A DNA stretch of 64,000 bases from Gemmatimonadaceae bacterium (GTDB taxonomy: Bacteria; Gemmatimonadota; Gemmatimonadetes; Gemmatimonadales; Gemmatimonadaceae). Made by a program: the position numbers and the translations under genes. Shown here piece by piece: positions 1,148 through 40,222 of the stretch. The DNA lies in assembly GCA_036496605.1 (NCBI GenBank), contig DASXKV010000025.1, positions 1 to 64,000 on the forward strand. Reading direction: 5' to 3'. The notes under the pieces are model-generated. The model was not told the origin of the DNA. It was given only the letters and a program-made list of their open reading frames with translations, and did no database searches. Numbering within the stretch: the first letter of the stretch is position 1; every line of letters starts with the position of its first letter.

Positions 1148-1164
1148 GCAAGAGCGAAATGACC

Positions 1165-1355
1165 AAACGGCGCGAAGTCCCAAACGACGCGAAGTCCCAT
1201 ACTGCGCCAGTTCCCATACGGCGCTGAGTTCCATACAGCGCGAGGTCCCAAACGACGTTTAACGACGTCCGGGACTTCGCGCCGTCTGGGACTTCGCGCC
1301 GTCCGGGACTTCGCGCCGTCCGGGACTCAGCGCCGTTCGGGACCTCGCGCCGTTC
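1165..1355. repeat. 17-bp unit inverted-array element, copy 1
   Basis: Five head-to-tail 17-bp units of the type AAACGGCGCGAAGTCCC (1165-1249) are followed by a 21-nt centre (1250-1270, core AACGACGTTTAACGACGT). Five units in the opposite orientation, GGGACTTCGCGCCGTCC type, follow (1271-1355). Degenerate partial units flank both ends. The two arms are reverse complements, so either DNA strand or an RNA copy can fold into a long hairpin. The unit length is not a multiple of three and no ribosome-binding site is present, so it is non-coding. It lies between two genes of the same direction, starting 17 bp after the first stop codon. Confidence 0.9.
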
Positions 1356-1489
1356 GGGCTCTTCAAATTCAAAATTGACGCCGAGGGGCACTGTTAGTCG
1401 ACATCGATCAGCGTACGCGCCGCCGATCGAACCTTTCGCTAGGCTGAATCGTAGGAACAGTGTCACGAGAACATCGAAATGGAGACGTC

Positions 1490-2413: not shown

Positions 2414-2705
2414 AAAGGCGCGAAATCCCGAACGGCGCGAAGTCCCGAACGGCGCGAAGTCCCGAACGGCGCGAAGTCCCGAACGGCGCGAAGTCCCAAA
2501 CGGCGCGAAGTCCCGAACGGCGCGAAGTCCCGAACGGCGCGAAGTCCCGAACGGCGCGAAGTCCCAAACGACGTTAAACGTCGTTCGGAACTCAGCGCTC
2601 TTCGGAACTCAGCGCTCTTCGGAACTCAGCGCTCTTCGGAACTCAGCGCCGTTTGGGACCTTGCGCAGTATGGGACCTGGCGCCGTTCGGGACTTCGCGC
2701 CGTTA
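2414..2705. repeat. 17-bp unit inverted-array element, copy 2 (largest)
   Basis: Nine left units (the first is 16 nt; then 2430-2565 in exact 17-nt register, most reading GAACGGCGCGAAGTCCC) are followed by a centre at 2566-2586 containing the perfect palindrome AACGACGTTAAACGTCGTT. Seven units in the opposite orientation follow (2587-2705). The right arm holds variants (GGAACTCAGCGCTCTTC repeated three times). The element fills the gap between two convergent genes: it starts 15 bp after one stop codon, and its last base coincides with the stop codon of the other. Open frames across it encode only a translated repeat and are not genes. Confidence 0.92.
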
Positions 2706-5367: not shown

Positions 5368-5430
5368 CGACGGCGCTGAGTTTCAAACGGCGCGAAATCC
5401 GAAACGGCGCGAAGTCCCAAACAGCGGCGC
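5368..5430. repeat. 17-bp unit element, copy 3 (half element)
   Basis: Three consecutive 17-nt units of the left-arm orientation (5368-5384, 5385-5401, 5402-5418; the last is AAACGGCGCGAAGTCCC) and a degraded fourth unit AAACAGCGGCG. Neither the palindromic centre nor the right arm is present. It lies 114 bp upstream of the DUF305 start codon and looks like a remnant or a seed of the full element. Confidence 0.85.
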
Positions 5431-14585: not shown

Positions 14586-15401
14586 TTACGGAGCTCCTCT
14601 CGACTCAGACGTTGCCGTGCTCGCGCGTACACACATCTTCATGAACGCGAGGGAACGATCGAAGCTCGCGGTGTCGGCCGGCTGACGCACGCTCGTCGCC
14701 GGCTCCGGCCGCGTCTCCCACGCCTGATCAATGAGATCGTGCCAACTCGCGTCGAACGTCGCCTTGGCCCATTCGGCTCCGCCGCGCTTCGAGCCTGGGC
14801 GGCCCGCGGTCAGATCATGCAGCATGCGCGCGTAGCTCAGCACGATGTAGCCCTGGTAGAAGCGGTTGCGGTACGGTCCTGGCTCGTTCAGGATTTCCCG
14901 CGCCCACTCATCCATGGTGCGGGCAATTTCCTCTCGTAGCGCGGGGATCGAGATCGGATCGACGAGCTCCGATGCGGGCGGCCCATCGAGTGTGATGCCT
15001 CGCTCGCGCAGCACAGAGCGGACGACGAGCGTGTTGCAGTGGCTCGACCTAACGAGGATGCTGCTGCCGTGGTCGAGGTACCACAGCGGCGCACCGGATC
15101 GCTCGCCACGGCGTAGGATCTCCAGCGGGAAGTACGATCCTTCGAGATGCTTCGCCCATCCGGCCGGCAAGTCGTAGATGTCGCGGTGCACCTTACCGAG
15201 CCTCGCGATCTGTTCGGTCGACAGCTCCTCGAGCACCGCGACGACGAAGTCCGCGTCACTGTGCTGGTCGAAATCACCGACGGCAAACGAGCCTTGCAGG
15301 TACGCGCCGATGAACGAGTCTCTCAGCGCGCGGCGGATGCCGTCGACGAGTTGCTCGAGAACGCCGTTGAGCTCGGGGTAAGGGGTTGGTGACACCGCCA
15401 C
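14586..15401 (-). CDS. Nucleotidyltransferase, DUF4111-like (aminoglycoside adenylyltransferase type)
   Basis: A 271-aa protein with the polymerase-beta-like nucleotidyltransferase signature YLQGSFAVGDFDQHSDADF: Gly-Ser followed after about ten residues by DxD metal ligands, near residues 36-53. The C-terminal helical region (SYARMLHDLTAGRPGSKRGG) resembles the DUF4111 tail of AadA/ANT(9)-type enzymes. Those enzymes adenylate aminoglycosides, but many homologues have unknown substrates, so resistance is not claimed. The GTG start at 15401 has a weak ribosome-binding site. It lies 18 bp downstream of the ADOP permease stop on the same strand. Confidence 0.8.
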   Translation of the reverse strand: MAVSPTPYPELNGVLEQLVDGIRRALRDSFIGAYLQGSFAVGDFDQHSDADFVVAVLEELSTEQIARLGKVHRDIYDLPAGWAKHLEGSYFPLEILRRGERSGAPLWYLDHGSSILVRSSHCNTLVVRSVLRERGITLDGPPASELVDPISIPALREEIARTMDEWAREILNEPGPYRNRFYQGYIVLSYARMLHDLTAGRPGSKRGGAEWAKATFDASWHDLIDQAWETRPEPATSVRQPADTASFDRSLAFMKMCVRASTATSESRGAP

Positions 15402-36743: not shown

Positions 36744-38354
36744 TCAGCGCGCACCGACCGTGGCGGCTGTCACGGGTGCGGCTTTCCGGAATTCGTCGAC
36801 GTCCGGCGATCGGAGTGCCGCCGGCGTGAGCGACTCGTACAATCGCAGCGATCGCACCGTACCGACCGGATCGACGACGAACTGCACCAGTCCCGCGCCT
36901 TCACGCTTCTCGCGCCACACCACCTTGTACGCGTCGCGCGACCACGGCTCGAGATCGCCGATCCGCGACGGTCCGTACTGCAGCACGATCTTGTCGGCCG
37001 CGACATCGACGTTCACGTCGCCGTACATCTCGTTCGAGTAGCGACCTGCATAACGATCGATCGGCACCGAAGGCGTTGCGTCTTTGGGGCGTGAAGCCTC
37101 CAGCCGCTGCATCGCCTGCGCCTGCGCAGCTTCCTGCTTGCGTGTCTCGGCTAACATAAGTGCACTCCAATCGCGCGGCGGAGCGCCGAGATACATATCT
37201 AGAATACGGTGGCCGATCGCGGCGAACACAGTGTTGTGACCCTCCGTGTTCGTGAGGATCACGAACCCCAGCCGCCGCTCGGGCACCCAGGTCACCTGCG
37301 AGAGCATGCCGTCGATGCCGCCAGTGTGCGACAAGACTTTCACACCGAGCAGATCATACATGCCGACGCCGAGTCCGTAGGCGTGGAAGTGCGTCGATGG
37401 CGAGAGCGTGTCGTCGGGACTGGGGATGATCGTTTGTGGTGATGAGATTTCTCGTAACGTCGCCGGAGCGATGAGCTGCCGGTTGCCAACAGCGCCGCCG
37501 TCGAGCAGGAAGCGCAGCCATTTCGCCATGTCTTCCACGTTGGAGTTGATCGCGCCCGCCGGACCGATGTTGTCGATGTTGCGCCAGGGAATGGACGTGA
37601 GTACTCCCTTATCCAACAGATGTGGTGTTGCGACGTCAGTTTTGCCAGCGAGCTCGCGCACGCTCGTGTTGCTCGCACTCATTCCGAGCGGTTGAAAGAT
37701 CCTTTCCTTGACCAGCTCGTCCCAGCTCCGACCTGCCGCGGCAGCGGTGGCCTCGCCGGCCGCGAGCACCATGATGTTCTGGTACCCGTACTGCGACCGG
37801 AAGCTGCTGTTCGGCTTCAGATAGCGAATGCGTCGCAACACTTCGGCGCGATCGAAGGGCGAGCCATACCAGAGCATGTCGCCGCGTCGTCCGAGGCCGC
37901 TTCGGTGTGAGAGCAGATCGCGGAGCGTAATCTCCCGCGTCACCCAAGGATCGTAAAGTTGAAAGGAGGGCAGGTACGTCGTCGCGGGGGCGTCCCAGCT
38001 CATTTTCTTCGCGTCGACCATCATGCCGGCGAGCGTGGCGGTGAACAACTTCGAGTTCGAGCCGATCGCGAACAGCGTCCGCGCATCGACGCGCTCTGGC
38101 TTGCCCGTCTCGCGCACGCCGAAGCCGCGCTCGTAGACGACGGAATCGTCGTGCACGATCGCAATGGCCAGTCCGGCGATTCCCCAATCGGCGACGGTGT
38201 GCTGGATGTACGCGTCGAGCGCAGTGAGGGATGCCGCGGACGGTGCGCTTGGCGTGGTGACGCGCTGAGCGTACAGCGGCACCGGCGACACGCCGGCACA
38301 TAGCGAAAATGAAAGAACGAACGTTCGAAGGCAACTGCGTGCCACTCTGTGCAT
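36744..38354 (-). CDS. Serine hydrolase (beta-lactamase/CubicO type) with DUF3471-like tail
   Basis: A 536-aa exported protein when started at 38354 (MHRVARSCLRTFVLSFSLCA, AGGAAG upstream). The penicillin-binding-like catalytic set is visible: SxxK in FAIGSNSKLFTA and the YxN-type QYGYQNIMVLAAGE. A third HTGG motif in VLSHTGGIDGML replaces KTG. The C-terminal 100 residues (IDRYAGRYSNEMYGDVNVDV) are the DUF3471/lipocalin-like tail seen in many CubicO peptidases. The substrate is unknown, and beta-lactam resistance is not implied. It is divergent from a paralogue; a 17-bp-unit element lies between them. Confidence 0.9.
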   Translation of the reverse strand: MHRVARSCLRTFVLSFSLCAGVSPVPLYAQRVTTPSAPSAASLTALDAYIQHTVADWGIAGLAIAIVHDDSVVYERGFGVRETGKPERVDARTLFAIGSNSKLFTATLAGMMVDAKKMSWDAPATTYLPSFQLYDPWVTREITLRDLLSHRSGLGRRGDMLWYGSPFDRAEVLRRIRYLKPNSSFRSQYGYQNIMVLAAGEATAAAAGRSWDELVKERIFQPLGMSASNTSVRELAGKTDVATPHLLDKGVLTSIPWRNIDNIGPAGAINSNVEDMAKWLRFLLDGGAVGNRQLIAPATLREISSPQTIIPSPDDTLSPSTHFHAYGLGVGMYDLLGVKVLSHTGGIDGMLSQVTWVPERRLGFVILTNTEGHNTVFAAIGHRILDMYLGAPPRDWSALMLAETRKQEAAQAQAMQRLEASRPKDATPSVPIDRYAGRYSNEMYGDVNVDVAADKIVLQYGPSRIGDLEPWSRDAYKVVWREKREGAGLVQFVVDPVGTVRSLRLYESLTPAALRSPDVDEFRKAAPVTAATVGAR

Positions 38355-38437
38355 GGGCTTCCTTGAAGCAGGGTGTGGACTGGGCTGCACGATTCTCGCG
38401 ACGGTGCAGGCGAGGAGCAAGAGGCCCGAGACGTCTC

Positions 38438-38655
38438 AAAGGGCGCGAAGTTCCAAACGGCGCGAAGTTCCAAACGACGCTGAGTCCCGAACGGCGCTGA
38501 GTCCCAAACGGCGCTGACTTCCATACAGCGCGAGGTCCCAAACGACGTTTAACGACGTCCGGGACTTCGCGCCGTCCGGGACTTCGCGCCGTCCGGGACT
38601 TCGCGCCCTCTGGGACTTCGCGCCGTCCGGGACTTCGCGCAGTTCGGGTCCTCCT
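38438..38655. repeat. 17-bp unit inverted-array element, copy 4
   Basis: Six left units (38438-38539), the 21-nt centre (38540-38560) and five right units (38561-38645), plus a partial unit. The centre and neighbouring units (38519-38576) are identical over about 58 bp to copy 1 (1229-1286), although the outer units differ. It lies between two divergent genes, so unlike copy 2 it cannot act simply as a shared terminator. It would be in the 5' region of both serine hydrolase genes. Confidence 0.9.
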
Positions 38656-38737: not shown

Positions 38738-40222
38738 GTGAGTGCATCTCGATGGTTGACGGCAGCGCTGCTCGTCGCGGCGCAGGCGCCGTTAGGCGCG
38801 CAGGCCAGGCCCGACTGGGCCGCATTCGACAAGTACGTCGCAAAGGCCGCCGCCGAGTGGCGCATCCCGGCGCTCGCGATCGCGGTCGTCAAAGACGATT
38901 CGGTCGTCTTCGCCAAGGGCTACGGCGTGTTGCAGAAGGGAACTTCGCAGCCCGCCAACGAGCACACGCGCTTTGCGATCGGATCGACGACCAAGGCGAT
39001 GACGGCCGCGTCGCTCGCCATGCTCGTCGACGAGGGCAAGCTCAAGTTCGACGACCCCGTCACCAAGTACATCCCCGAGCTCCAGCTGTACGATCCATGG
39101 GTCACGCGCGAGCTCAGGATCCGCGACCTCCTCACACATCGCAGCGGTCTGCCAGGCACCGACTTGTTCTGGGCGACGAGCTGGAAGTACAGCCAGGCGG
39201 ATATCATCCGGCGGCTTCGCTACATCCAACCCACGGCCTCGTTCCGCTCGGAGTGGCAGTATCACAACGTCATGTACGCCCTCGACGGCCTGATCATCGA
39301 GCGCGTCTCGGGCATGCCTTGGGAGCAGTTCGTCAAAACGCGGCTCTTCGCGCCCCTCGGCATGAACGAGACCGAACCGCTGGTCTCGCTGATCATGGGC
39401 AAGCCTAACGTCGCCGTTCCGCACGCGCTCATCAATGATTCCGTGACGGTGGTACCGGTACGGTCCACCGACGGCGTGGCGTCGGCGGGAAGTGTCTGGT
39501 CGAGCGTGTCGGATATGGCCAAGTGGATGCGGTTCGTGATCGACAGCGGCCGCGTCGGCGACAAGCGCTTGATTCAGCAGCGTACTTTCGCCGAGTTGAT
39601 CACGCCGCAGATTCAGGCACCGATGGAAGAGTACCCGGCGCTGCAGCTCGCGAAGCCCGACTTCTTCAGCTATGGGTTTGGATGGTTCATCCAGGACTAT
39701 CGCGGCCAGCAGGTCTGGATGCACACAGGCAGCATCAACGGTCTGTGCGCGATCATCGGCATCGAGCCGAACAAACGGCTCGGCGTCTACGTGCTAGAGA
39801 ACCTCGACCACGCGGAGCTCCGCCACGGTTTGATGTACACCGTGTTCGACCTCTTCGAGAATGGTCCGCGCCGCGACTGGAGCGTCGACCTAAAGCCGAT
39901 CTTCGCGCGCCCGCCGGCGAGGGTGGCGCAGACCGGGCATGCGACATCGCCTCCGTCGCTCCCGCTCGAGCGCTACGCCGGGACGTACGTCGACTCGGCC
40001 TATGGCGACATACACGTCGCCTTCCAGAACGGCGCGCTAGAGGCCGCGGTCGTCACCGATCCCGCCGCGCCGCTGGAGGCGGTGAGCTTCGACGCGTTCC
40101 GCACGAAGCCGAGCGGCAGCGCTCGCCCGACGGTGTTGACGTTCGTTCCCGACGGAAACGGCGGCGTGAGTGGGGTGCGCGTGTTCAACATCCTGTTCGC
40201 TCGCGAGCGCGCACAACGATGA
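38738..40222 (+). CDS. Serine hydrolase (beta-lactamase/CubicO type), paralogue
   Basis: A 494-aa exported protein, GTG start (signal peptide SRWLTAALLVAAQAPLGAQA). SxxK is in FAIGSTTKAMTA, YxN in WQYHNVMYALDG, and the third motif is MHTGSINGL. The C-terminal tail (LERYAGTYVDSAYGDIHVAF) is DUF3471-like. It is clearly homologous along its length to the divergent gene at 36744-38354 (shared DDPVTKYIPELQLYDPWVTR-like block), so the pair arose by duplication and inversion. The CGTTAGGC octamer encodes part of its signal peptide. Substrate unknown. Confidence 0.9.
   Translation: MSASRWLTAALLVAAQAPLGAQARPDWAAFDKYVAKAAAEWRIPALAIAVVKDDSVVFAKGYGVLQKGTSQPANEHTRFAIGSTTKAMTAASLAMLVDEGKLKFDDPVTKYIPELQLYDPWVTRELRIRDLLTHRSGLPGTDLFWATSWKYSQADIIRRLRYIQPTASFRSEWQYHNVMYALDGLIIERVSGMPWEQFVKTRLFAPLGMNETEPLVSLIMGKPNVAVPHALINDSVTVVPVRSTDGVASAGSVWSSVSDMAKWMRFVIDSGRVGDKRLIQQRTFAELITPQIQAPMEEYPALQLAKPDFFSYGFGWFIQDYRGQQVWMHTGSINGLCAIIGIEPNKRLGVYVLENLDHAELRHGLMYTVFDLFENGPRRDWSVDLKPIFARPPARVAQTGHATSPPSLPLERYAGTYVDSAYGDIHVAFQNGALEAAVVTDPAAPLEAVSFDAFRTKPSGSARPTVLTFVPDGNGGVSGVRVFNILFARERAQR

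What the first reader, a model, noticed from the sequence alone, without database searches (positions are those of the whole stretch)
38519..38576. Cores of element copies 1 and 4 are identical over about 58 bp, 37 kb apart
1229-1286 and 38519-38576 match without difference, while the outer units differ between the copies. The core must have been copied recently, or kept identical by gene conversion or selection, while the arms expand and contract by slippage. This points to a mobile or converting core.
Basis: seen in the sequence. Interest (0 to 1): 0.6.

Follow-up and report, generated by a model that had tools for sequence, protein, structure and literature searches.

The report
Mirrored repeats linked to mobile hairpin genes
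The two identical stretches are the middles of short mirrored-repeat elements that can fold into long hairpins; the same kind of mirrored repeats flanks a small four-helix-bundle gene (best known from inserts in ribosomal RNA genes) in most bacteria sampled, so these look like gene-less copies of a widespread, little-described mobile hairpin element.

Summary
The 58-bp identity is real, exact and maximal (1229-1286 = 38519-38576). It is the middle of a ~200-bp element that matches at 90% overall and whose flanks are unrelated. Each element is a mirror-image array of 17-bp units around a palindrome-like core and can fold into a long hairpin (-130 to -198 kcal/mol). In the same genome and two congeners, 17-bp arms of this kind sit around a four-helix-bundle gene (PF05635/TIGR02436, the S23p/IVP of 23S-rRNA intervening sequences). 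That architecture proved general: inverted repeats, mostly short tandem arrays, flank this gene in 57/72 Gemmatimonadaceae loci (random positions 1/400) and 56/80 loci from many phyla (control 0/160). Repeat period follows the protein tree, and gene-less arrays resemble those of gene-bearing copies in the same genome. Sister cyanobacterial plasmids give two-sided empty sites, so gene-bearing elements come and go. The window copies are best read as gene-less, non-autonomous members of a 17-bp lineage. No RAYT was found in the genome, and gene conversion is not needed. How the elements move is not shown: no transposase, no consistent target duplication. I found no paper describing such elements outside rRNA genes, but the library searched is open-access only.

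The parts
1163..1358 (.). Element copy 1: mirrored array of 17-bp units, left arm about 1163-1249, core about 1250-1270, right arm about 1271-1358
   Evidence: hairpin -130.3 kcal/mol, z -12.2
1229..1286 (+). 58 bp identical to 38519-38576 (innermost left unit, core, innermost right unit)
2417..2704 (.). Element copy 2: same architecture with diverged core, in the intergenic space between convergent genes; relatives have a short hairpin at this place
5369..5426 (.). Half element: left-arm type units only; absent next to the same neighbouring gene in sister genome G001
38433..38648 (.). Element copy 4 (the finding): mirrored 17-bp array, left arm about 38433-38539, core about 38540-38560, right arm about 38561-38648, between two divergent paralogous PF00144 genes
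   Evidence: hairpin -142.1 kcal/mol, z -11.1; genes
38519..38576 (+). 58 bp identical to 1229-1286

Best explanation
The window copies are gene-less (non-autonomous) members of a mobile hairpin element family. Its gene-bearing form is one small gene for a four-helix-bundle protein (PF05635, the S23p/IVP of rRNA intervening sequences) held in the loop of a long stem built from inverted short tandem repeats. SHOWN: the anatomy and hairpin potential; 17-bp arms of the same family around IVP genes in this genome and in both congeners (in G002 the left arm is cut by the contig start); coupling between repeat period and IVP lineage; gene-less arrays whose units resemble those of IVP-bearing copies in the same genome; two-sided empty sites for IVP-bearing relatives on cyanobacterial plasmids; arm-length differences in whole units between closely related copies. 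INFERRED: the IVP binds its cognate repeat hairpin (as RNA or single-stranded DNA) and drives or licenses the spread of IVP-bearing and IVP-less hairpins; in transcripts the stem may be cut by RNase III, as reported for rRNA intervening sequences, which would let elements sit in operons at low cost. Copies 1 and 4 then come from one recent copying of a gene-less element, after which outer arm units turned over by slippage.
For: Same 17-bp arms around PF05635 genes. Inverted repeats of score 20 or more flank IVP in 57/72 Gemmatimonadaceae loci vs 1/400 random positions; same-period mirrored arrays 39/72 vs 2/300 random and 9/400 swapped; 56/80 loci from many phyla vs 0/160 control. Period labels change 5 times on the IVP tree vs 13.1 when shuffled, 17-bp set one clade with support 99. 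Gene-less arrays resemble own-genome IVP arrays more than foreign ones in 32/36, p = 9e-7. Occupied/empty pairs and an IVP-less array allele at the same site. Whole-element copying of 1 and 4 with unrelated flanks.
Against: No clean two-sided empty site for any 17-bp copy: in G001 only one flank of copies 2 and 4 is found at each place. No consistent target duplication. No intact mobility enzyme recognised in the element, and the genome has no PF01797 and only a frameshifted reverse transcriptase. About a fifth of IVP loci lack a strong inverted repeat. Gene-less copies could descend by IVP loss rather than move in trans. In one clade (L070, L076, L081, L087) no arrays are seen.
Confidence: 0.66

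Rival explanations
1. Passive hairpins: the arrays grow in place from existing terminator-like hairpins by replication slippage and template switching, similarity between copies comes from gene conversion, and IVP genes merely land in or shelter within such hairpins.
For: At the site of copy 2 the relatives G001 and G017 have ordinary terminator hairpins and G016 another hairpin repeat. Arms do expand independently.
Against: Copy 4 lies between divergent genes, not at a terminator. Repeat period follows IVP lineage and IVP genes are flanked by arrays across many phyla. IVP elements arrive as a block with arrays at or near the ends.
Confidence: 0.18
2. MITE-like or REPIN-like non-autonomous copies moved by an ordinary transposase acting in trans; the IVP gene is passenger cargo of the same element.
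For: Dispersed, inverted-repeat, gene-less copies; one pair with a short flanking repeat GTAAT.
Against: No PF01797 in the genome; no consistent target duplication in the other pairs; termini are variable tandem arrays, not fixed ends. Other transposase families were not searched genome-wide.
Confidence: 0.1
3. One reading: a mobile or gene-converting core with passive arms.
For: 0/58 mismatches in the centre vs 20/138 in the arms between copies 1 and 4.
Against: Arms of copies 1 and 4 still match position by position (left 0.86, right 0.91) and run length P = 0.012 is modest. The core was not found without arms except for one isolated exact 15-mer match. In IVP-bearing relatives the arms enter and leave with the element.
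Confidence: 0.06

Closest known systems
23S rRNA intervening sequence (IVS) with S23p/IVP open reading frame (Leptospira, Coxiella; PMC4990558 and references there)
   Same: A four-helix-bundle gene of the same family in the loop of an inverted-repeat stem; in Coxiella variable tandem heptamers lie next to the ORF (PMC4990558); described there as selfish or parasitic, with a mobile-element origin proposed.
   Different: Window elements are intergenic, carry no ORF, and have stems made wholly of mirrored 17-bp tandem units; related IVP elements are scattered over genomes, up to 14 PF05635 genes in one genome.
REPIN/RAYT systems (PMC3116915 is the REPIN paper; content from own knowledge)
   Same: Short palindromic intergenic repeats, with a gene-bearing relative suspected of driving spread.
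   Different: No Y1 transposase in the genome; variable tandem arrays instead of fixed 20-40 bp palindromes; linked protein is PF05635.
MITEs
   Same: Short, inverted-repeat, gene-less copies alongside a gene-bearing relative in the same genome.
   Different: No transposase parent known and no consistent target-site duplication.
Cyanobacterial short tandemly repeated repetitive sequences (STRRs), known to me from the literature and not tested here as a family
   Same: Heptad tandem arrays like those flanking IVP genes on Nostocales plasmids.
   Different: STRRs as I recall them are described as orphan repeats, not linked to an IVP gene; the 17-bp unit here is longer.

Membership tests
rRNA intervening sequence (IVS) | Located inside a 16S or 23S rRNA gene | tested here: not met
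   No Rfam family reaches its gathering score anywhere in the window; the elements lie between protein-coding genes
rRNA intervening sequence (IVS) | Inverted terminal repeats forming a long stem | tested here: met
rRNA intervening sequence (IVS) | S23p/IVP ORF in the loop (present in only some IVSs) | tested here: not met
   Window copies have a core of about 20 bp and no ORF; met for relatives L085 and L083, and partly seen in L065, where the contig starts inside the left array
rRNA intervening sequence (IVS) | Excised from RNA by RNase III | not testable with these tools
   needs RNA data
REPIN/RAYT | RAYT (Y1 transposase, PF01797) gene in the genome | tested here: not met
   with positive controls in 5 of 14 named genomes
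Mobile element (general) | Presence/absence at orthologous sites with both flanks conserved | tested here: inconclusive
   Met for IVP-bearing relatives on cyanobacterial plasmids; for window copies only one flank could be matched
MITE | Target-site duplication and fixed terminal inverted repeats of a known transposon | tested here: not met
   One short flanking repeat in the relatives examined, ends variable; other transposon families not searched
PF05635/TIGR02436 (IVP) for the gene-bearing 17-bp relatives | Score above curated cut-off | tested here: met
   Pfam, NCBIfam

The most novel reading that the evidence does not exclude
The four-helix-bundle IVP and a cognate repeat hairpin together form a transposase-free class of mobile element spread across most bacterial phyla. 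rRNA intervening sequences are its ribosomal niche, and orphan short-tandem-repeat hairpins such as those in this window are its non-autonomous copies. The IVP itself, or IVP with a host factor, recognises the repeat and drives insertion.
Probability: 0.38. Interest if true: 0.9.

Novelty: new variant of a known kind. Interest (0 to 1): 0.74.

Why it matters
PF05635 'four helix bundle' genes are common in bacterial genomes and have no assigned function. A widespread cis signature (inverted short tandem arrays), coupling of repeat period to protein lineage, resembling gene-less arrays and empty sites would give that family a concrete, testable role as part of a mobile hairpin element. It would also offer an origin for intergenic heptad and 17-bp repeat hairpins that are usually treated as unexplained repeats.

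Tried and rejected
RAYT linkage: none in the genome. Core pattern elsewhere in the genome: GACGTTNAACGNCGT occurs without mismatch only in window copies 1, 2 and 4 plus one isolated place on C50; hits with mismatches run into the hundreds and were not followed up. 17-bp unit outside the genus: isolated single hits only (two in one genome) among the other genomes of a 298-genome phylum sample. Two-sided empty sites for window copies and the C4 copy in G001/G002: not obtained, because both flanks were not found together. Conserved target-site duplication: not found beyond one case. Known RNA families in the window: none. Reverse transcriptase in the genome: two pieces of one frameshifted gene. 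Literature for intergenic IVP elements with mirrored arrays: nothing found in ten searches of an open-access library; subscription papers and preprints were not searchable, so an earlier description cannot be excluded. Mirror-paired units are no more alike than random units of the two arms (0.73-0.78 vs 0.76-0.77), so there is no sign that arms co-evolve unit by unit. Array-flanked genes were compared with random positions, not with other small genes, as control.

Full report
OBSERVATION. 1229-1286 and 38519-38576 are identical over exactly 58 bp, and the identity ends there on both sides. Around it, 196 columns align without a gap at 90%: 12 mismatches in 66 left-arm columns, none in the central 58, 8 in 72 right-arm columns. 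A run this long has P = 0.012 if mismatches were scattered at random. The sequences outside the arrays have no blastn similarity. The identity is therefore the best-kept middle of a whole copied element.

ANATOMY. Each copy is a mirror-image tandem array: 17-bp units in one orientation, a short palindrome-like core (about AACGACGTTTAACGACGTC), then the same unit reverse-complemented. Copy 1 is 1163-1358, copy 2 2417-2704, copy 4 38433-38648, and 5369-5426 is a half element. As RNA, copies 1, 2 and 4 fold into long hairpins of -130, -198 and -142 kcal/mol (z -12, -14, -11). Units can be very alike within one arm (copy 2 left arm 0.95) while the two arms of a copy differ (about 0.76), so arms expand independently. 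A diverged core is shared by copy 2 and by two elements of the sister genome G001, so it marks a lineage of gene-less elements older than the copy 1/copy 4 event.

WHERE IT OCCURS. The window's genome (5.97 Mb, 70 contigs) has such arrays on six contigs. The genus sisters G001 and G002 have them too; across a 298-genome sample of the phylum the unit pattern otherwise occurs as isolated hits. The family is probably Gemmatimonadaceae: genome G018 of the same family carries an IVP at the same coordinates as the 1.1-Mb plasmid of Gemmatirosa kalamazoonensis.

THE KEY LINK. In G001 and G002 17-bp arrays of this family lie around a gene of about 105-120 codons, identified as PF05635/TIGR02436, the S23p/IVP four-helix bundle of rRNA intervening sequences (solved relatives 2GSC and 2RLD). 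The window's own genome has eleven such genes, one of them (C59, L085) inside 17-bp arrays. In G002 the contig starts inside the array left of the gene, and the part that is visible has right-arm orientation, so enclosure is not fully shown there. The three 17-bp IVPs are 69-77% identical to each other and 21-35% to the others aligned.

GENERALITY. In 72 Gemmatimonadaceae IVP loci, mirrored arrays of the same period flank the gene in 39 (threshold 10), against 2/300 random positions and 9/400 swapped flanks. Inverted repeats of score 20 or more flank 57/72, against 1/400. In 80 loci from named genomes of many phyla, inverted repeats of score 16 or more, mostly of 7-bp period or its double, flank 56/80 against 0/160 control positions. 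Period is coupled to protein lineage: 5 changes on the IVP tree against 13.1 when shuffled, with the 17-bp set one clade at support 99 (labels were assigned only to strong arrays, 33 of 73 rows had none, and the tree has few columns).

GENE-LESS COPIES RESEMBLE GENE-BEARING ONES. In 464 kb of the genome, gene-less arrays, many of them mirrored, are common and on contig C4 lie almost only in its first 75 kb. They resemble IVP-flanking arrays of the same genome more than those of other genomes in 32 of 36 cases (Wilcoxon p = 9e-7; some arrays are two arms of one element or overlap, so they are not all independent). All 17-bp arrays have the 17-bp IVP copy as their best match, and the 14-bp array on C4 at 9656 matches a 14-bp IVP copy. 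For several of the window arrays the match is no better than the control, so for the 17-bp family the period is the stronger link.

MOBILITY. Sister plasmids of Nostocales give occupied/empty pairs for IVP elements at several loci: Trichormus and Scytonema occupied vs Aulosira and Nostoc linckia empty at about 97% flank identity; Calothrix brevissima vs Tolypothrix, Aulosira and Nostoc carneum; Nostoc edaphicum nrdB-IVP-nrdA vs Calothrix NIES-4105 nrdB-nrdA; Nostoc C052 vs Nostoc C057 at a tra locus. The tandem arrays lie at or within a few bases of the ends of the inserted DNA. At the tra locus Nostoc ATCC 53789 has an IVP-less allele with heptad-like arrays, so gene-bearing, gene-less and empty states occur at one site. 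Arm lengths differ by whole units between close relatives (14 bp; one heptad between L297 and L302). One pair shows a short flanking repeat (GTAAT); others replace 10-60 bp, which argues against a standard transposase. For window copies I could show absence beside one conserved neighbour in G001 but no two-sided empty site.

MECHANISM. Best supported: a hairpin element whose only protein is the IVP. Shown: anatomy, coupling, resembling gene-less copies, presence/absence of gene-bearing relatives. Inferred: IVP binding to the hairpin, spread in trans of gene-less copies, and RNase III cutting in transcripts, as reported for rRNA intervening sequences (PMC4990558). Whether spread goes through RNA or single-stranded DNA is open. 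The similarity of some IVPs to the retroelement accessory protein Avd (below cut-off) is a lead only, and this genome has just a broken reverse-transcriptase gene.

KNOWN OR NEW. rRNA intervening sequences with S23p are the closest described system; the Coxiella one has variable heptamers beside the ORF (PMC4990558). The window elements fail two of its features (not in rRNA; no ORF), so they are not filed as members. I found no account of the intergenic, mirrored-array, genome-wide form, within an open-access library only. I rate this a new variant of a known kind, with a fair chance that the class as a whole deserves more.

Noticed in passing
L297 1070-1650, L302 720-1290, L300 720-860, L301 720-1060 (Nostoc plasmids): One tra-locus site has an IVP-bearing element (C052, N. 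edaphicum), an empty allele (C057) and an IVP-less array allele (ATCC 53789).
   Followed up: partly
L256 2890-3390 (Nostoc edaphicum plasmid pNe_5): A heptad IVP element sits between the ribonucleotide reductase genes nrdB and nrdA, in opposite orientation to them; Calothrix NIES-4105 lacks it.
   Followed up: partly
G000 contig C4: first 75 kb vs 100-286 kb (L271-L285): Short tandem and mirrored arrays are dense in the first 75 kb of the contig and nearly absent from the rest.
   Followed up: no
L271 about 15061-15318 (G000:C4): A dispersed repeat of up to about 250 bp with many copies at roughly 76-92% identity in sister genomes G001 and G002; identity unknown.
   Followed up: no
L246 3660-3765 (G016), place orthologous to window 2704: A different long hairpin repeat, GTCATTCCGAGCGAAGCGAGGAATCT with its inverse, lies downstream of the same gene where copy 2 lies in the window.
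   Followed up: no
L249 1250-1350 and L250 1275-1360 (G016): One-sided arrays of a related, apparently 15-bp unit (CCCGAACGGCGCCAA) in another genus of the family, without an obvious mirrored arm.
   Followed up: no
window 36744-38420 and 38738-40222: Two paralogous PF00144 (beta-lactamase family) genes with DUF3471 tails diverge from copy 4.
   Followed up: partly
L032 530-810 (G000:C4:13630-13910): This 17-bp element is bordered by a further 14-bp inverted repeat outside the arrays, CGCAAAGTGATACC and GGTATCACTTTGCG.
   Followed up: no
G000:C38:192525-193035 (L298, L299): The only reverse-transcriptase match in the genome is split over two frames.
   Followed up: no
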